64,000 nt of DNA, from NCBI RefSeq assembly GCF_001467525.1, contig NZ_LNXS01000042.1:1-64000 (forward strand), read 5' to 3'. The DNA comes from Legionella anisa. GTDB taxonomy: Bacteria > Pseudomonadota > Gammaproteobacteria > Legionellales > Legionellaceae. The translations under genes and the position numbers were made by a program. Under the pieces are notes generated by a model that saw nothing but the letters and a program-made list of their open reading frames with translations, did not search any database and was not told the DNA's origin. Shown one piece after another: positions 15,419-23,003 of this stretch (its first letter is position 1; each line of letters starts with the position of its first letter).

Positions 15419-16288
15419 ATGTGGGAGCGGATCTTCAATACGGCAAAGACAAAACAACCCATTTCCACCACAGGAATGTTTGCTCATACTTATTATTGGC
15501 TTATGTCACCCGCCGGGGATCAAACCTATCAGAATTCTTTCTACACGAATGAGCCAAATCAAGAATCAGGGACTGCAGTTTATTTTATTCATGGTACAGC
15601 GGATCAATCTTCAGCGTTTCAACGTGTTGCCGAACGCTTGATTCAGGCTGGACTTCCTAAGGATATTTCTTCCTTAAATTTACTTTCTTTTGGACAACGA
15701 TATCAGGGAAAAAGTATCGAGTTTTTTGCGGAACAACTTAGGGATAAAATAAAAGCAAATCATCATCGACGCGTTATTTTAATTGCTCATTCGCGTGGCG
15801 GTTTAGTTGCCTCATATTTCGCAGAGTTTTTGGCCAAATTAGCAGGGATTGAAGTACTTTTGATTATTACCGTGGGGACACCGTTTAATGGTTCTTATCT
15901 TGCCATGAAACCCTTGTCCTGGTTTTCTGATTCAATAAGGGAAATGGGAGTTGATAGTGAATTTCTGATACGGCTTAAAAGAAAAATAATGGAAAATTCA
16001 TCAAGCGCCTATCATTTTTTCATTGCAACAGAAGATGCAATTGTTCCAGGAGAATCCGGGTATATTAAGGAATATGTTGATAAGTATCCAAACTCACTTA
16101 GCATTTTAGATCGCCACGGTCATCTTTCGGTGATGTCTTCTCATCGCTTAGTGTCCCAAACGATCTATTTGCTCCGCAAATATTTAAATTCACCGCTTAT
16201 TAATTCAGAAGTCATCGTTTCTAAACTGGCAGACTTTACCCTAATTGAAGACTATGTTCCTGGGCAGCGTAAAAGTGCTGGCTCTTGA
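15419..16288 (+). CDS. Alpha/beta-hydrolase, lipase-like
   Basis: This is a 289-residue cytoplasmic protein. ATG 15419 has GGAG seven bases upstream and is preferred over TTG 15395. GTAVYFIHGTADQSSAF is the oxyanion-hole strand with HG, and VILIAHSRGGLVASYFAE is the nucleophile elbow with Ser125. ATEDAIVPGESGYI supplies the acid region, and DRHGHLSVMSS the late histidine. This is the fold of triacylglycerol lipases and PGAP1-like esterases. It reads into the biosynthesis-like cluster on the same strand, but 83 bases with a weak hairpin separate them. It could be an esterase of that pathway or independent. Confidence 0.8.
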   Translation: MWERIFNTAKTKQPISTTGMFAHTYYWLMSPAGDQTYQNSFYTNEPNQESGTAVYFIHGTADQSSAFQRVAERLIQAGLPKDISSLNLLSFGQRYQGKSIEFFAEQLRDKIKANHHRRVILIAHSRGGLVASYFAEFLAKLAGIEVLLIITVGTPFNGSYLAMKPLSWFSDSIREMGVDSEFLIRLKRKIMENSSSAYHFFIATEDAIVPGESGYIKEYVDKYPNSLSILDRHGHLSVMSSHRLVSQTIYLLRKYLNSPLINSEVIVSKLADFTLIEDYVPGQRKSAGS

Positions 16289-16330: not shown

Positions 16331-16371
16331 ACAATGCGGTTGTTTGTATTAATGCGGTAGTCATTAATTAT

Positions 16372-17541
16372 ATGAACTATGATCTCTATAAAAACATACC
16401 CCTATATGCGACCTTGTGGCAAGATGATTTTTTGCCCATTCTCGAAAAGTCTGCCATCGTCGCTAATTTCCCGCATAATTGGCTCACTCCAGAGATAGAA
16501 AATGCGCTGGGGAAAGGTGATGTAGAGTGGGTTGCTTCTTCTGGAACCACTTCAGAACGTATGCAAATTATGCGTCCCTCCAATTGGCGTCAGGATCAAT
16601 TAAATAAAACATTTAATCAACACACCCTTCTTAAAAAATGCTGGGATAGATCACTGACTCGAATCGCACTGACCACCACCGTGTGCTCGCAAACGGTTTG
16701 TTTTAAGGCGGATCACGGTGTAGACAAACGATTTATTGGAAGAACTTTATATATTAATTTGACACCTGATCCGCAAGCCTGGAGTGAAGGTGATATCGAA
16801 CGCATGCTCCGTGAAATAGCAGATGAGAACGATTACTTTTTAGATGCCGATCCTTATTATCTGGCGCTCTTTTTAAAACAATTAGAAAAATATCAATTAG
16901 AGAAAAATTTTGTTAAACCACAGGCCGTTACTTTGGGTTATGAGTTGGCTACGGCAAATATTCGTCGCTACATCGAACAAAAGCTTAACGTTCCCGTGAT
17001 TAATCTCTATGGAAGTACGGAATTAGGGTATCTGCTCATGGAAAAGGAACATGGCCAATTGGTGCTGTGCTCAGAATTGACGGAGGTTGAATTTTTACCT
17101 TTAGAATCAACCCAAAATTTATACAGTCTGATTGTCAGCTGCGTTAAAAATCCTTATATGCCTTTAGTTCGTTATCGCACAGGGGATTGCGTGCAAGTTG
17201 GTACTGACCATTCGCCGTTGTCGGTTCAGAGAATTTGTGGCCGCGAAAAAGAAATGATTGATACACCAGCTGGAACATGTGTGCCGCATGCTTTTGTTGA
17301 TGATCTCTTAGCGGTTTTAGCACCGACAATGCTTATCTATCAGCTGCAGGAATTGGGAAAAGACAAATTAGAATTAGCTTATACCACGTTCAATGATGAA
17401 CCGCTCCCGCCCGATTTTGGGCAGTTACAGGAACAATTAGTTCGATTATTAGGTAAGCCCTGTTCTTTTCAGCACAGGCAAAGCATCTCCCCAAGCGGAT
17501 CAGGAAAATTCTGTTGGTTAAAAAAGGAGGGGCAGTATTGA
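16372..17541 (+). CDS. Adenylate-forming enzyme, PaaK/CapK-like
   Basis: This is a 389-residue member of the AMP-forming ligase superfamily. WVASSGTTSERMQIMRP (Ser56-Thr60) is the phosphate-binding loop, INLYGSTELGYL the A5 motif (Y/G-x-T-E), and MPLVRYRTGDCVQVG the A7 hinge-proximal motif. The GREKEMID and SPSGSGKFCWLK segments correspond to the small C-terminal domain with the final catalytic Lys. It is shorter than phenylacetate-CoA ligases (about 430 residues). The expected reaction is activation of a carboxylic acid as acyl-AMP, then transfer to a thiol or amine. It opens a four-gene run and overlaps the next gene through its TGA. No clear ribosome-binding site is seen at ATG 16372. Confidence 0.85.
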   Translation: MNYDLYKNIPLYATLWQDDFLPILEKSAIVANFPHNWLTPEIENALGKGDVEWVASSGTTSERMQIMRPSNWRQDQLNKTFNQHTLLKKCWDRSLTRIALTTTVCSQTVCFKADHGVDKRFIGRTLYINLTPDPQAWSEGDIERMLREIADENDYFLDADPYYLALFLKQLEKYQLEKNFVKPQAVTLGYELATANIRRYIEQKLNVPVINLYGSTELGYLLMEKEHGQLVLCSELTEVEFLPLESTQNLYSLIVSCVKNPYMPLVRYRTGDCVQVGTDHSPLSVQRICGREKEMIDTPAGTCVPHAFVDDLLAVLAPTMLIYQLQELGKDKLELAYTTFNDEPLPPDFGQLQEQLVRLLGKPCSFQHRQSISPSGSGKFCWLKKEGQY

Positions 17542-18734
17542 ATGCTTATCAGAATGATTTTCCTATTATTCAAAATTTGTCCTTAGATACCCAGCCTTAT
17601 ATTTTTTTGGATAATGCTGCAACTACATTAAAGCCGCAAACTGTAATTGATGCGATAACCCATTACTATACTCATTGTGGCGCTACGGTTCATAGGGGAA
17701 GTTATAAGGAAAGTGAGCGGGCTACACTGATGTATGAGCACAGTCGCTCTTTGGTCGCTCAACTGATTAATGCAAAAAAACATGAAATCATTTTTACTAA
17801 AGGAACAACGGACAGCATCCACTATATTACCGAGTTACTGGAACTTAAAAAAACAGACATCGTGATTAATTGTCGTCAAGAGCATCACGCTAACTTTATT
17901 CCCTGGAGTGAGTACGCACAGTTGATAACCATTGATTTATCAAATGATGGGGTGATTGATTTAGCTGCATTGGAAATGCAACTTAAAAAAAACAAGGTCA
18001 AATTAGTAACCATTGCCTATGCTTCTAATGTCACGGGCAATGTACAACCGGTAAAAGAAATTGTTGCACTTGCCAAGCAATATAAGGCATTGACCTGTAT
18101 TGATGGCGCGCAAGTTATTAGTCATAGACCGGTAGATGTGGTGGAGTTGGATGTTGATTTTTTTGTCTTTTCCGCTCATAAATTATTCGGTCCATCCGGT
18201 GTCGGTATCTTATACATTCACGATTCTCTATTGATTGACTTACCTCATAAGCGATTTGGGGGTGGCATGGTTAATGTTTATAACGACAGCCAAAAACTCT
18301 TTAAACGTCCCCCTTTGGGTTTTGAGCCGGGAACGCCAGCCATAGAAGCAGTGATTGGCTTTGGAAAAGCGATTGAATACGTTCAAAAAGTTGGGTTTGA
18401 GGCAATCATGCACCATCATAGTGCTTGGTCAACGTATTTTTTACGACGATTGGAATGCAGCTCGTGGACGCTCGCTTTTCCTAAAAGCAAGGACAGTTTG
18501 GCTATTTTTACCTTGCGCCCTAAAAAAGCTCATGTTGATTTGTCCTATTTAACCCGCATGCTTTCTGATACATACAATATTGCGGTCAACGATGGCCAAC
18601 AATGTTGCGGCCCACTTTATTTTGCTGCTGATCTGTCAACAGGACTGAGGGTATCAGCACATCTTTATAATCCATTATCGGATGCAGATTACTTTTTTCA
18701 ATGTCTTAATCAATTAGAGTTTTTTATAGGATAA
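17538..18734 (+). CDS. Cysteine-desulfurase-like (SufS/CsdA family) PLP enzyme
   Basis: This is a 398-residue fold-type I aminotransferase class V protein. FLDNAATTLKP is the N-terminal signature. DGAQVISHRPVDV supplies the PLP Asp, FSAHKLFGPSGVG carries the Schiff-base Lys215, and NDGQQCCGPL aligns with the active-site Cys loop of SufS (Cys356 or Cys357). The start is TTG 17538, because GGAGG lies at ideal distance and the codon overlaps the preceding stop, giving translational coupling. SufS enzymes release sulfur from cysteine. Relatives act as selenocysteine lyases, epimerases or C-S lyases. No suf or isc genes are adjacent, so a dedicated role in the local pathway is more likely than Fe-S assembly. 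Confidence 0.85.
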   Translation: MNAYQNDFPIIQNLSLDTQPYIFLDNAATTLKPQTVIDAITHYYTHCGATVHRGSYKESERATLMYEHSRSLVAQLINAKKHEIIFTKGTTDSIHYITELLELKKTDIVINCRQEHHANFIPWSEYAQLITIDLSNDGVIDLAALEMQLKKNKVKLVTIAYASNVTGNVQPVKEIVALAKQYKALTCIDGAQVISHRPVDVVELDVDFFVFSAHKLFGPSGVGILYIHDSLLIDLPHKRFGGGMVNVYNDSQKLFKRPPLGFEPGTPAIEAVIGFGKAIEYVQKVGFEAIMHHHSAWSTYFLRRLECSSWTLAFPKSKDSLAIFTLRPKKAHVDLSYLTRMLSDTYNIAVNDGQQCCGPLYFAADLSTGLRVSAHLYNPLSDADYFFQCLNQLEFFIG

Positions 18735-18915
18735 GGTTGCTATGAATACATACTAAAGTTCGTTAGCACGCATTCGAAGAATAGAAATTGATAGGGAGCT
18801 GTGGGGGTATTTCCTTAAGGAAACCGATAACTTTGACCCTATTATTTTAGAAAAACGTCCTTATAGCCGTTTTATTATTGCCCATAAATTACAGGAAATT
18901 CTTGGGCAAAGCACG

Positions 18916-19650
18916 GTGAACATGCTCGTACACACGGTACAATCGCATGAGTTTGGCGGTGTTTTTATCACATATCCCTATGAAGAATATGATTTTTCTC
19001 ATCATTTGCGACTTGCTACAGCGGTTGCCTACACCCTTGGTGTCGCCTATTTTGATGAAATGAGCCAGCATTATTATGCAGCAATCAATTTAGGTCCAAA
19101 TACACAAGGTGATTCTTTTTTGTCAGAGCCTTACCATGATCTTCGTTTACATACTGATGGGACTTTTTATAAAAAACCAGTGGAATGGGTAGTATTAATC
19201 AAAACGAAACAACACGATGTTGATGGCGGTGAATTGACATTGCATCATTTAAACGACCTTGAGGCGCTTGATACTTTTCTCAGCCATCCATTGGCGTTGG
19301 CCCCTTTTTTATTTGAGGCCTCTGCAAGTAAACAATTAAATGCAGGAGTTCAGCAGGCCATTTTTTTTGAAAAAAACGGGATGCTTGGTATACGATTTAG
19401 CGATCAATTTTGTCAACCTCAATCATTAGAGCAGGCATTATTTTTACACCATCTATCGGATTGTTTCGAACAATCGGACGCTCGACTTGTCGATTTTTTT
19501 CCTCCTGGGCAAGTTGTGATATTGAATAACAGCTGTTGGTTGCACGGCCGACTAAAGATAATTCCTAAATTAAACTTTATGCGTCAATTGTTGCGTATAC
19601 GGGGTGCATTCACGATAGAAAAGGAGATGGAATGCAACAAAATGATATAG
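18916..19650 (+). CDS. CsiD/GlaH-family Fe(II)/2-oxoglutarate oxygenase, N-terminus interrupted
   Basis: The frame from GTG 18916 gives 244 residues that match CsiD/GlaH (glutarate 2-hydroxylase) in order. These are the LATAVAYTLG helix, LRLHTDGTFY with iron ligands His79 and Asp81, a DGGELTLHHLND strand, RFSDQFCQP, and NNSCWLHGR with iron ligand His210, followed by MRQLLRIRGAF. Family members are about 320 residues. The missing N-terminus is present upstream in the same frame (ELWGYFLKETDNFDP, then RPYSRFIIAHKLQEIL) back to ATG 18742, which has AAGG upstream. However, codon 5 of that reading is TAA (18754-18756). The gene is therefore nonsense-interrupted, or starts at an unusual codon. Its 3' end overlaps the next gene by 19 bases. 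Confidence 0.8.
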   Translation: MNMLVHTVQSHEFGGVFITYPYEEYDFSHHLRLATAVAYTLGVAYFDEMSQHYYAAINLGPNTQGDSFLSEPYHDLRLHTDGTFYKKPVEWVVLIKTKQHDVDGGELTLHHLNDLEALDTFLSHPLALAPFLFEASASKQLNAGVQQAIFFEKNGMLGIRFSDQFCQPQSLEQALFLHHLSDCFEQSDARLVDFFPPGQVVILNNSCWLHGRLKIIPKLNFMRQLLRIRGAFTIEKEMECNKMI

Positions 19651-21038
19651 ATTTATTTGAACATTTACTCTATAAAGAAACCCAGTATTTAAAGGAAATT
19701 GAAAGCCAAGGTTTGCTGTGCGAAGAGCCGCAATGGCAAATTGGCTTGGAATTAGAAGGATGGTTTATTGATCGTACTTTAATGCCTCAACCCTTGGCAC
19801 CTAAAATGATAGCTGAATTAAATCAGCCTGAGTTATCTGAAGAAATTACCCAAGATGTTTTTGAAATTAACCTTAATCCGATTAACGTCCAAGCTGGTTT
19901 TCTTACTCAGTTCGATAAAAATTTAACAACTCTTTATCAACTATGTAACGATTGGGCAAGTCAAAATAATACTCAAATCATCACCATAGGCATGTTGCCT
20001 CATTTATCCCCAAACCATTTTAAGCGTCATTTATTGACGAACAATCTACGCCATCATGTACTGAATGAATTGTTATTGAAACAACGAGATTTTCAGCCTT
20101 GGTCAATCAAAATCGAGGGAGAAGAAATAATAGAGCTGACCGCTGAGGATATTTGTCTTGAGGCGGCAACCACGTCGACGCAATTTCATTTAAAAGTCCC
20201 GCAACATCAAATGGTTCGTACTTATAATCGCGCCCAATTACTAGCCGCTCCTATGGTTGCATTAGCTGCCAATGCGCCTTATTTTAATAGTAAATCGTTA
20301 TGGCAGGACACACGTATTCCATGGGTACAGCAAACTGTTTCAGAACAGCTTCCGCCAAATTGTTGGATAAATCGAGAAGACAGAGTGCTCTTTGGACATG
20401 AATACGTACGAAACTCCATTACGGAGTTATTTCAAAGTAATCTTAAGTTTTCTTCCTTAGTACCTACAGTCAATTTGGAAAAGGCAGACCTGTTCCACCA
20501 CTTAAAACAACATAATGGTACGATTTGGCGTTGGAACCGGCCTGTAGTTGGTACGTGTGATCAATCAGGAGCGTATCATATCCGGTTGGAACATCGAGTT
20601 CAAAGTGCAGGGACATCGCCAAGCGATATCGCGGCACAGTTGGGCTTTTATGTTGGTATTCTTGCTTATTGGCAATTACATGATTTTAACCCGGTAGAAA
20701 AAATAGACTTTCAACACATAAGAAATAATTTCTATCAAGCAGCTCGTTTCGGTCTACAGACGGAAATCGTATGGGAAAATACTCGATCCGTAAAAATTTT
20801 TGATCTGCTTCATTTAGAGCTGCTGCCCAAAGCAAAATTAGGTTTGTTCTCTTTGGGGTTGTCTACTGCGGAGATTGCATTTTATTTGGATGAAATCTTA
20901 AACCAACGCCTTAAACAAGGATTGTCTGGTGCGATTTGGCAACAACAAAAAGTAAAAAAATACGGCAGTGTCCAAACAATGCTTGAACAATATCATGCTC
21001 ATCAGCAGACCTTAAAACCTTTATGGTGCTGGGATTAA
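19632..21038 (+). CDS. GCS2-type glutamate-cysteine-ligase-like carboxylate-amine ligase
   Basis: This is a 468-residue protein with the GCS2/YbdK-type pattern. GLELEGWFID near residue 38 (acidic metal-binding residues) and ITQDVFEINLNP (E-x-N) are the first ATP/Mg strands. LEAATTSTQFHLKVP forms the substrate-site strand, and RLEHRVQSAGTSPSD the late conserved Arg/Glu segment. Family members make amide bonds from a carboxylate and an amine using ATP, as in glutamate-cysteine ligase or EgtA. ATG 19632 has AAGGAG at good distance, inside the end of the oxygenase gene. It closes the four-gene set. Which amino acid is ligated cannot be read from the sequence. Confidence 0.8.
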   Translation: MQQNDIDLFEHLLYKETQYLKEIESQGLLCEEPQWQIGLELEGWFIDRTLMPQPLAPKMIAELNQPELSEEITQDVFEINLNPINVQAGFLTQFDKNLTTLYQLCNDWASQNNTQIITIGMLPHLSPNHFKRHLLTNNLRHHVLNELLLKQRDFQPWSIKIEGEEIIELTAEDICLEAATTSTQFHLKVPQHQMVRTYNRAQLLAAPMVALAANAPYFNSKSLWQDTRIPWVQQTVSEQLPPNCWINREDRVLFGHEYVRNSITELFQSNLKFSSLVPTVNLEKADLFHHLKQHNGTIWRWNRPVVGTCDQSGAYHIRLEHRVQSAGTSPSDIAAQLGFYVGILAYWQLHDFNPVEKIDFQHIRNNFYQAARFGLQTEIVWENTRSVKIFDLLHLELLPKAKLGLFSLGLSTAEIAFYLDEILNQRLKQGLSGAIWQQQKVKKYGSVQTMLEQYHAHQQTLKPLWCWD

Positions 21039-21269
21039 CGCTTCGAATTTGGTGTTAAGTAAATTCACGACAATCAATGTGTGAACTGCGGATCTAGAAC
21101 GAGCGCACATGCTTCATTTTATTTTTAATTTCTCGCTACATTCCAGGTTGTACTCCTATTTTAATGGATAATTTAAATCCTTGTTGTGTTTAATAAATTC
21201 TTAATGTTTTTTTGTTAACCTATGTTTTTTTAAATAAATAGATAAAAAAATATAGAGGGCAATAGGGGT

Positions 21270-22745
21270 ATGAGTAATTTATTTTTGTTAAATACAGCGA
21301 CTTTAGAAGATAAGGATATTTTAAATATTTTGATATTAGCGGGAATTACGAAAGAGATGGATTTTGATTCAGAGATTGCAAAAGCACCTGCGGGAGTGAA
21401 ACAATTTCTTGAGCTTGCGAAAATCTATTATGAGCGTAATGAAACAAGTACTTCCATTATGAAGTTTACTGTGAAGCCAGGTTTTGAGAGATGTGTCGTT
21501 GAGGATGTACCTGCAGAAAAAAATGAAATACGGCTGGTGTGTGATGAACATGATGGAAACAAATGGTATCTTGTTACGAAACAACCCGATGGAAGTCGTT
21601 TTGAAAAAGAAATTTCAAAAATTACCGAGGACGAAGCGCGAAAGAGCTTTCTTTGCGGGGTAAAATTAGATGAGCTAAAAAGCCATTTAAATCATCAAAC
21701 AGTAGACACGCTCAATTATCAAGTGTGGCCAAAACTGAAATCCAAATGTTTCTCGCATCCAAGTCCTCTTCACGAAATGGGTGATCTACTTAGAGCAAAT
21801 CTTGATAGCCCCAAAAGTGACCTGGAAAATCAGAAAATCAAAAACATTCGCAGGTATTTAAATAAAAAAGCCAAAGAGCAAAATGTGTCACTGATTATTT
21901 ATTCGAATAAGGCAGATGAGGATTCATGTGGACGTAAAGAGAGTCAGTATGTTAAAGAAAATTTGGAAAGAGAATTAAGCCAAGAGCAACAGTTACACAT
22001 ACTCTATATTGGTGGAGGGCATGGATGGCCTAAGCATAAATGGAATGGCATGTTATCTGCTCTGAAGACACAACATGTTGAGGAACTTCATAATTGCTTC
22101 ACAAAAAGGGACGTTGTGGTCAATAGCATCATTTTTGGAAGTTGCTTTAGCGCATCTTATGCAAATGACTTTTCTAACCTGCTTCATCCCCAATGCGGTG
22201 TTATGTTATCTTCGACAATTTCTCAAGGCGGGACTAATTTTTTTGAAAATGTAGTCTCGTTTGTGTTGAGCGAAGAAGATTCCTGTGATTTTTTTAAAAC
22301 AATCCCGCGAAGCCTGCAAGTTTCCCACGCGCCAAGTCCAACAGGAATTTGTATTTCTAACAAGGAAAAGCACTTTGGGTTAGAATTAAGCGAAGAGGAG
22401 ACGGGGTTACCCATTCATTCTGTAGAGGATGAATATGAATTAAGCTTAAGCATAGTAATACGGTTGAGAAAGGCAAAACCGGAGAGTATTTTTGGTATTT
22501 CATTGGATGAGTGTCATGATGAACACCAAAAAGTCGAATTCAACAAATTGCTCAGTAAAGCGCTCGACTTCCAAGAAGGTGATGAGGATATTGAAGATCT
22601 CCCCAGTAAGAAGATGGACAAACCTTCATCTGAAAAGGGCTGGAGTCCTTTAGCTAAATTTTCTTTATTTGCCGGAGGAGTCATTTTGATCGGAGGTAGT
22701 TGTTACCTTTTGAGCCAGTATAAAGGGGGATCAAGCGTCAAATAA
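21270..22745 (+). CDS. Putative clan CD (caspase/C11-like) cysteine peptidase with C-terminal membrane anchor
   Basis: This is a 491-residue protein starting at ATG 21270 behind AGGGG. In the central domain a hydrophobic strand ends in LYIGGGHGWP (His251). A second strand ends in SIIFGSCFSASYAND (Cys292), with 41 residues between them. This His-Gly / Ser-Cys geometry is the hallmark of clan CD peptidases (caspases, clostripain, MARTX CPD). The N-terminal 170 residues are unassigned. After an acidic linker, LAKFSLFAGGVILIGGSCYLL (about 463-483) is a single membrane helix followed by a short basic tail, a tail-anchor topology. There is no signal peptide. Activity and host targeting are inferred; no family match is certain. 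Confidence 0.6.
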   Translation: MSNLFLLNTATLEDKDILNILILAGITKEMDFDSEIAKAPAGVKQFLELAKIYYERNETSTSIMKFTVKPGFERCVVEDVPAEKNEIRLVCDEHDGNKWYLVTKQPDGSRFEKEISKITEDEARKSFLCGVKLDELKSHLNHQTVDTLNYQVWPKLKSKCFSHPSPLHEMGDLLRANLDSPKSDLENQKIKNIRRYLNKKAKEQNVSLIIYSNKADEDSCGRKESQYVKENLERELSQEQQLHILYIGGGHGWPKHKWNGMLSALKTQHVEELHNCFTKRDVVVNSIIFGSCFSASYANDFSNLLHPQCGVMLSSTISQGGTNFFENVVSFVLSEEDSCDFFKTIPRSLQVSHAPSPTGICISNKEKHFGLELSEEETGLPIHSVEDEYELSLSIVIRLRKAKPESIFGISLDECHDEHQKVEFNKLLSKALDFQEGDEDIEDLPSKKMDKPSSEKGWSPLAKFSLFAGGVILIGGSCYLLSQYKGGSSVK

Positions 22746-22866: not shown

Positions 22867-23003
22867 GACTCAATCTAGCGATGAATTGTTACATGGTATT
22901 TCAAATAAATGTGATAAATAAAATCGCACAATGGAAAGTATTAGACATAATTAGATTGGTTTTGATAGAGTTATCCTATTCTTTTAAAGTGATAAGAAAT
23001 CTA

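What the first reader, a model, noticed from the sequence alone, without database searches (positions are those of the whole stretch)
16372..21038. Uncharacterised four-gene biosynthesis-like operon
Seen: an adenylate-forming enzyme, a cysteine-desulfurase-like PLP enzyme, a CsiD/GlaH-type 2-oxoglutarate oxygenase and a GCS2-type ligase follow each other on one strand, with overlaps between genes 1 and 2 (TTG inside TGA) and between genes 3 and 4 (19 bases). Known: these families activate acids, act on C-S or amino groups, hydroxylate aliphatic carbons and form amide bonds. Inferred: together they could build a small modified amino-acid or thio-containing metabolite. GCS2 and PLP lyase members also occur in ergothioneine synthesis, but EgtB and EgtD are absent. 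I know no described pathway with this set. The lipase-like gene at 15419 may belong.
Basis: partly seen in the sequence, partly recalled or inferred. Interest (0 to 1): 0.75.

Follow-up and report, generated by a model that had tools for sequence, protein, structure and literature searches.

The report
Four-enzyme thio-amide operon in Legionella
Four neighbouring enzyme genes in a Legionella form one block that the sister species searched lack, pairs of them recur side by side in other bacteria, and together they are predicted to build an unknown small sulfur-containing molecule, although here the third gene has a stop codon close to its likely start.

Summary
In detail: a PaaK-type adenylating enzyme, a SufS-type desulfurase, a CsiD-type oxygenase and a GCS2/YbdK-type ligase follow each other at 16372-21038. 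Sister species searched lack the four-gene block; the lipase-like gene is older and does not belong. The genes are rare but recur together: PaaK+SufS in G067, CsiD+GCS2 in G058, and seven public contigs, matched only by identical length, pair CsiD with PaaK or GCS2, one with both. Catalytic residues are kept, including those that hold glutarate in CsiD. Best reading (inferred): PaaK-like and SufS-like turn an acid into a thioacid; CsiD-like hydroxylates a glutarate-like acid, which GCS2-like joins to an amine. The product is unknown. Side finding: distant PaaK-like relatives in Streptomyces, Sorangium and Paraburkholderia sit beside peptides with GCIS repeats, an apparently undescribed RiPP-like family, which makes a RiPP-related role a serious rival.

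The parts
16372..17541 (+). Gene 1: PaaK-type ANL adenylating enzyme (389 aa), with CSxxxC at residues 105-110 and the C-terminal Lys 379
   Evidence: model pLDDT 89, best PDB match PaaK1 2y27; no Pfam family
17538..18734 (+). Gene 2: SufS-type cysteine desulfurase-like PLP enzyme (398 aa from TTG 17538; the ORF caller starts at TTG 17514)
   Evidence: PLP Lys, His, Cys and Arg kept; QQCC in place of HHCA; start with AAGGAGG upstream
18742..18756 (+). Likely original start of gene 3 (ATG 18742) followed by an in-frame stop TAA at 18754-18756
   Evidence: relatives carry this N-terminal region uninterrupted
18757..19650 (+). Gene 3: open frame of the CsiD/GlaH-type Fe(II)/2-oxoglutarate oxygenase; GTG start used by the ORF caller at 18916
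   Evidence: Fe, 2OG and glutarate-carboxylate residues kept (H79, D81, G82, H210, R227, R229 of the 244-aa form)
19632..21038 (+). Gene 4: GCS2/YbdK-type carboxylate-amine ligase (468 aa)
16334..21168 (.). Smallest block absent from relatives, combined from two of them: homology to G024 ends at 16333 (G004: 16289) and homology to G041 begins at 21169. No single relative has both flanking genes without the block

Best explanation
The four genes sit as one block that the sister species searched lack, and they are predicted to make a small sulfur-containing amide in which the PaaK-like enzyme would adenylate a carboxylic acid, the SufS-like enzyme would donate cysteine sulfur to turn it into a thioacid, the CsiD-like oxygenase would hydroxylate a glutarate-like five-carbon acid, and the GCS2-like ligase would join that acid through its distal carboxyl to an amine. 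Shown: gene content, order and overlaps; absence of the block from the relatives; PaaK next to SufS and CsiD next to GCS2 in other genomes; catalytic residues kept. Inferred from equal contig lengths: CsiD together with PaaK. Inferred: horizontal gain; the direction of sulfur flow (the CSxxxC loop of the PaaK-like enzymes could accept persulfide sulfur); the use of L-2-hydroxyglutarate, which is L-glutamate with OH in place of NH2, as the acid that the glutamate-type ligase takes; the order of steps; the product. In this strain the interrupted start of the oxygenase gene may lower or abolish that step.
For: Relatives lack the block: G024, G004 and G025 have the lipase-like gene next to gene 22881 without it, and G041 has gene 21270 next to HerA without it. 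CsiD: Fe ligands His160/Asp162/His292, 2OG Arg309, glutarate Arg311 and Gly163 (passages of PMC6265302) all map to columns invariant in 14 rows. SufS-like catalytic residues kept. CSxxxC in 14 of 14 Legionella-type PaaK-like proteins and in 3 of 3 other Legionellaceae loci (one of them also among the 14), but in 0 of 78 loci of the RiPP-linked branch; the loop has pLDDT under 50. GCS2 fold nearest YbdK and glutamate-cysteine ligases.
Against: No biochemistry exists. G149 has the PaaK-like gene alone, and G067 lacks CsiD and GCS2 beside the pair. The oxygenase frame is interrupted near its start in the window. The CSxxxC pattern could follow phylogeny or bind a metal rather than carry sulfur; 6 of 106 other listed homologues also have it. 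Among the 14 window proteins scanned with Pfam none is a transporter, carrier protein or regulator that would fit the pathway.
Confidence: 0.42

Rival explanations
1. The enzymes are part of a RiPP-type pathway: they modify a ribosomal Cys-containing peptide encoded elsewhere in the genome, as distant PaaK-like and CsiD-like relatives appear to do.
For: PaaK-like relatives in Streptomyces, Sorangium, Paraburkholderia and others sit downstream of a peptide with GCIS or GCVS motifs in 78 of 78 loci outside Legionellaceae (any start codon; 68 of 78 under a stricter start rule, 0 of 1338 control regions on either strand); these 78 are among the best 80 of 133 loci found. A 25% CsiD-like relative in G048 follows a Cys-rich 37-aa peptide and a relative of the DEIWH protein of those loci. 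In G156 the PaaK+SufS pair is divergent from a YcaO gene.
Against: No such peptide lies beside the four genes: a profile of the GCIS peptides finds nothing better than E 0.5 in the window, L046, L047, L048, L135, L002 and L003, and candidates with two C-terminal Cys near the operon lie only on the other strand. The rest of the genome was not scanned.
Confidence: 0.25
2. A low-molecular-weight thiol pathway analogous to ergothioneine: GCS2 makes gamma-glutamylcysteine, an iron enzyme couples it, and the PLP enzyme cleaves the C-S bond.
For: The same enzyme classes (gamma-glutamyl ligase, iron enzyme, PLP enzyme) occur in ergothioneine synthesis (recalled).
Against: Gene 2 is SufS-type (359 bits against 77 for EgtE, cut-off 400) with the persulfide cysteine kept; the iron enzyme is CsiD-type; the adenylating enzyme has no place in that pathway (recalled); no EgtB- or EgtD-type family among the 14 window proteins scanned with Pfam. 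The rest of the genome was not searched for EgtB or EgtD.
Confidence: 0.08
3. A decaying passenger: the block was acquired horizontally, and in this lineage the pathway is already broken at the oxygenase gene, so it makes nothing or only an intermediate.
For: In-frame TAA as the fifth codon after the best start; a public protein of the same gene (P0241, 99% identical, 28 contigs) also starts at the codon that is ATT in the window; sporadic distribution.
Against: The rest of the oxygenase frame (297 codons) and the other three genes are fully open, and the GCS2 protein is 97% identical to its L. anisa counterpart; reinitiation downstream is possible.
Confidence: 0.2
4. Unrelated housekeeping paralogues that happen to be neighbours.
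For: All four belong to large families with housekeeping members; G149 has the PaaK-like gene alone.
Against: Pairs recur in independent genomes and contigs; each protein scores under the curated cut-off of the characterised family it resembles; the genome has other desulfurases and another GCS2 protein.
Confidence: 0.05

Closest known systems
CsiD/GlaH glutarate 2-hydroxylase (E. coli, lysine degradation; PMC6265302)
   Same: Sequence family; Fe, 2-oxoglutarate and glutarate-carboxylate residues
   Different: Under the GlaH equivalog cut-off (206 bits; 218-241 in four full-length relatives; cut-off 333); sits with PaaK, SufS and GCS2 genes; interrupted start here
SufS cysteine desulfurase
   Same: PLP Lys, His, Cys and Arg of the active site
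   Different: 359 bits against a cut-off of 475; QQCC instead of HHCA at the catalytic cysteine; linked to an adenylating enzyme; the genome has a separate copy, 35% identical
PaaK-type AMP ligases of natural-product synthesis (NatL2, ClxA; their CoA-free role is recalled)
   Same: ANL fold; Foldseek matches at E about 1e-15
   Different: Under 20% identity; CSxxxC loop; linked to a desulfurase
YbdK and glutamate-cysteine ligases (GCS2 clan)
   Different: About 15% identity to these; about 100 residues longer than the YbdK model; sits beside a CsiD-type oxygenase gene
Paulomycin paulic acid genes (desulfurase Pau31, ThiF-like Pau30, acyl-CoA synthase Pau34; passages of PMC4425429)
   Same: A desulfurase and an acyl-activating enzyme proposed to put sulfur into a natural product
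   Different: Proposed to use a ThiF-like protein and a recruited sulfur carrier; no CsiD or GCS2 gene is named in the passages read

Membership tests
GlaH glutarate 2-hydroxylase | Fe ligands His160, Asp162, His292; 2OG Arg309; glutarate Arg311 | tested here: met
   Mapped by alignment to 1jr7/6gpe and invariant in 14 rows
GlaH glutarate 2-hydroxylase | NCBIfam NF002814 equivalog cut-off 333 bits | tested here: not met
   205.8 bits; four full-length relatives 218-241
SufS cysteine desulfurase | PLP Lys, His, catalytic Cys, substrate Arg | tested here: met
   Alignment to 5xt5; the roles of these residues are recalled
SufS cysteine desulfurase | TIGR01979 cut-off 475.1 bits | tested here: not met
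   358.9 bits
PaaK phenylacetate-CoA ligase | ANL fold with P-loop and C-terminal Lys | tested here: met
   Fold; G58 T59 and K379 in 14 of 14 close homologues; motif roles recalled
PaaK phenylacetate-CoA ligase | TIGR02155 cut-off 646.3 bits | tested here: not met
   28.5 bits
YbdK carboxylate-amine ligase / GCS2 | GCS2 fold | tested here: met
YbdK carboxylate-amine ligase / GCS2 | Curated cut-offs (Pfam 21, TIGR02050 176.4) | tested here: not met
   20.4 and 17.4 bits; most close homologues carry a precomputed PF04107, P0005 does not
Ergothioneine pathway | EgtE-type PLP lyase | tested here: not met
   77.4 bits, cut-off 400
Ergothioneine pathway | EgtB and EgtD present in the genome | not tested
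   Only 14 window proteins were scanned with Pfam
RiPP gene cluster | Precursor peptide beside the enzymes | tested here: not met
   Profile and Cys-tail scans; rest of the genome not scanned
Phosphorothioation defence (Dnd/Ssp) | DndA/SspA with partner proteins | tested here: not met
   Gene 2 matches DndA/SspA models; no PADLOC match for the other 6 proteins scanned

The most novel reading that the evidence does not exclude
The operon is a ribosome-free branch of a RiPP chemistry: GCS2 builds a hydroxyglutaryl- or glutamyl-cysteine unit that replaces the ribosomal GCIS-type peptide, and PaaK-like plus SufS-like, through the CSxxxC loop, convert its C-terminal carboxylate to a thioacid without any ThiS-type carrier, giving a new class of thiocarboxylate peptide, perhaps a metal chelator.
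Probability: 0.1. Interest if true: 0.85.

Novelty: new variant of a known kind. Interest (0 to 1): 0.58.

Why it matters
A compact set of four enzymes with no carrier protein, NRPS, PKS or visible precursor beside it could be missed by rules that look for those marks. If the PaaK-like and SufS-like enzymes make a thioacid directly, that would be a carrier-free route to thiocarboxylates. The glutarate-type oxygenase beside a glutamate-type ligase suggests a testable substrate chain. The linked GCIS peptides in Streptomyces and others look like an undescribed RiPP-like family that can be tested in harmless hosts.

Tried and rejected
Ergothioneine-type pathway: disfavoured by the EgtE score and the desulfurase residues. 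Plasmid origin: no match in the plasmid collection (one blastn search). Viral contigs: no relative of the PaaK-like or CsiD-like protein. Defence system: only generic DndA/SspA similarity. Lipase-like gene as a fifth member: rejected. Precursor peptide beside the operon: not found. Further PaaK+SufS pairs: the G156 PaaK-like protein as query gave 3 of 143 family genomes at 1e-40 (G156, G149, own) and 1 of 369 class genomes at 1e-30 (own). Promoters and terminators: no more matches than shuffles, uninformative.

Literature: ten searches of the held library. Those aimed at this combination listed no title or abstract start about it: RiPP with phenylacetate-CoA ligase (the second held no paper), GCIS with precursor peptide (one unrelated paper), Legionella clusters with a desulfurase (15 of 22 listed), CsiD with gene clusters, L. 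anisa with gene clusters. The others were 10 of 25 listed; 6 of 87 listed. Of PMC6265302, PMC4425429 and PMC5126622 I read passages; all others were listings. PMC5126622 ran antiSMASH with ClusterFinder on Legionella genomes including L. anisa and reports bacteriocin clusters in all species; its supplementary table was not seen, so this operon could be in it among putative clusters.
Full report

The third gene. Homology to CsiD relatives runs about 50 residues upstream of the GTG at 18916. The best start is ATG 18742 with AAGG upstream, and that frame meets TAA at 18754. Relatives carry the N-terminal region uninterrupted. A 99% identical public protein on 28 contigs begins at the codon that is ATT in the window. 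Whether this gene is translated here from a rare or internal start, or is impaired, cannot be told. I left the frame as it is.

The block. Six stretches of relatives were compared. In G024 (L154), G004 (L155) and G025 (L156) the lipase-like gene and gene 22881 are neighbours without the four genes and without gene 21270; in G041 (L158) HerA, gene 21270 and gene 22881 follow each other without the lipase-like gene and without the four genes; L157 and L159 hold only one of the genes each and tell nothing. Nucleotide homology ends at 16333 (G024) and 16289 (G004) on the left, and on the right begins at 21169 for G041 but only at 22945 and 22899 for G024 and G004. The smallest block absent from relatives, about 4.8 kb, thus holds exactly the four genes, but its two edges come from different relatives and no single one has both flanking genes without it. 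I read it as gained here because close homologues of genes 1 to 3 are rare in the family; loss in the others is not formally excluded. The lipase-like gene is present in 16 of 45 genus genomes, gene 21270 in 4 of 45. Among 14 window proteins scanned with Pfam none was a recombinase or transposase. GC is 0.39-0.42 for the four genes against 0.37 for the window.

Distribution. Among 140 genomes (relatives), PaaK-like matches at E <= 0.001 occur in 16, but only G000 and G067 are strong. With a divergent query, 4 of 143 genomes match at 1e-30: G000, G149, G067, G156. SufS-like at 1e-90: 2 of 143, G000 and G067. CsiD-like at 0.001: 4 of 140, G000, G035, G048, G058. GCS2 at 0.001: 40 of 140, but only G058 is close (60%); the other non-self matches are at most 37% identical. 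A profile search in 369 genomes of the class at 1e-40 found only the own genome. Strains of what is probably the same species do carry the genes: P0121 and P0241 stand for 30 and 28 contigs.

Co-occurrence. G067 has PaaK-like and SufS-like genes overlapping in the same way, with no CsiD or GCS2 beside them. G156 has a more distant PaaK+SufS pair (27% and 35% identity). G058 has a CsiD C-terminal fragment (67% over 49 residues) at its contig end, 105 bp upstream of GCS2 on the same strand. G149 (the same contig as L048, judged by coordinates) has PaaK alone. In the protein database, 5 of 13 Legionella-type PaaK homologues (P0122-P0134) share an identical longest-contig length with one of 16 CsiD homologues that have a length given, and 3 of 120 listed GCS2 homologues do so, all among the best 8; the length 101,998 is shared by all three proteins. 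PaaK homologues from P0135 on were not compared. Same-length pairs are rare: 1 of 7140 among the 120 GCS2 hits. The contigs themselves could not be opened, so the SufS gene and the order are not known there. Only the longest contig of each cluster is given, so misses mean little.

Catalytic residues. Passages of PMC6265302 give for CsiD the Fe ligands His160, Asp162, His292, the 2-oxoglutarate analogue on Arg309, and glutarate on Arg311 and the Gly163 amide. These map to H79, D81, H210, R227, R229 and G82 of the 244-aa form, all invariant in 14 sequences. The protein should therefore still take an acid with a carboxylate placed as in glutarate (inference). It scores under the GlaH cut-off (206 against 333; 218-241 for four full-length relatives), so I do not file it as GlaH. 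The SufS-like protein keeps the PLP lysine, the HHAN histidine, the cysteine and the arginine (roles recalled), with QQCC at the cysteine in the window and G067 and QHCC in G156, against HHCA in the genome's nearest other desulfurase. The PaaK-like proteins of the Legionella type carry CSxxxC (residues 105-110) in 14 of 14 sequences; so do three of three other Legionellaceae loci (L046, listed twice as L049 and also among the 14; L048; and the 27% identical partner in G156); 0 of 78 loci of the RiPP-linked branch have it, and 6 of 106 other listed homologues do. This loop is one of two stretches of the model with pLDDT under 50. A sulfur relay is one reading; a metal site or shared ancestry are others.

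Mechanism. I infer that gene 1 adenylates an acid, gene 2 supplies sulfur to give a thioacid, gene 3 hydroxylates a glutarate-like acid, and gene 4 uses that acid in place of glutamate to make an amide. L-2-hydroxyglutarate is L-glutamate with OH for NH2, which would explain why a glutarate-type hydroxylase sits beside a glutamate-type ligase. None of these steps was tested.

RiPP link. Of the best 80 of 133 loci of the PaaK-like family in the genome collection, 78 lie outside Legionellaceae (mostly Streptomyces; also Sorangium, Paraburkholderia, Burkholderia, Amycolatopsis, Kutzneria and a few others). All 78 have, upstream of the PaaK-like gene, a peptide of the type MEQLIKKMAQDDVWxxWVAANSA...KDGCISA..KSGCISA..KxGCIS, most but not all ending in GCIS; under a stricter rule for the start codon 68 of 78, against 0 of 1338 control regions on either strand. 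A protein of about 170 residues with the motif IDEIWH follows in 71 of 78 by motif; by blastp 77 of the 82 sources compared have a match to it. One representative, from L098, has no Pfam or NCBIfam match. In G048 a relative of this protein (E 2e-5 in a small set) overlaps a CsiD-like gene and follows a 37-residue peptide ending CHPCIGCA. So PaaK-like and CsiD-like enzymes both occur in RiPP-like settings. No precursor was found beside the window operon. Two searches of the held library found no paper on the GCIS peptides.

Verdict. A real, rare, probably horizontally gained biosynthetic operon of known families in a combination that my searches did not find described; product unknown; one gene possibly impaired here.

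Noticed in passing
L050-L127 (e.g. L057:9500-9751, L054:9727-9876): Peptides with GCIS/GCVS repeats upstream of PaaK-like genes in Streptomyces, Sorangium, Paraburkholderia and others, mostly followed by a DEIWH-motif protein: an apparently undescribed RiPP-like family.
   Followed up: partly
L137:1871-3160 (G048): A 37-aa peptide ending CHPCIGCA, a DEIWH-type protein and a CsiD-like oxygenase in a row, downstream of what looks by eye like a tRNA-Leu gene.
   Followed up: partly
L135:4533-8133 (G156): YcaO gene (best NCBIfam matches: YcaO-type domain and McrA-glycine thioamidation protein, the latter under its cut-off) divergent from a distant PaaK-like + SufS-like pair.
   Followed up: partly
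L002:1489-3758 (G000 contig C6): The genome's other GCS2 protein lies beside a gene that resembles class II glutamine amidotransferases (by eye, EgtC-like; recalled, not tested).
   Followed up: no
21270-22745: A protein of 491 aa with no Pfam match, found in only 4 of 45 genus genomes (own included); it lies between HerA and gene 22881 in G041.
   Followed up: no
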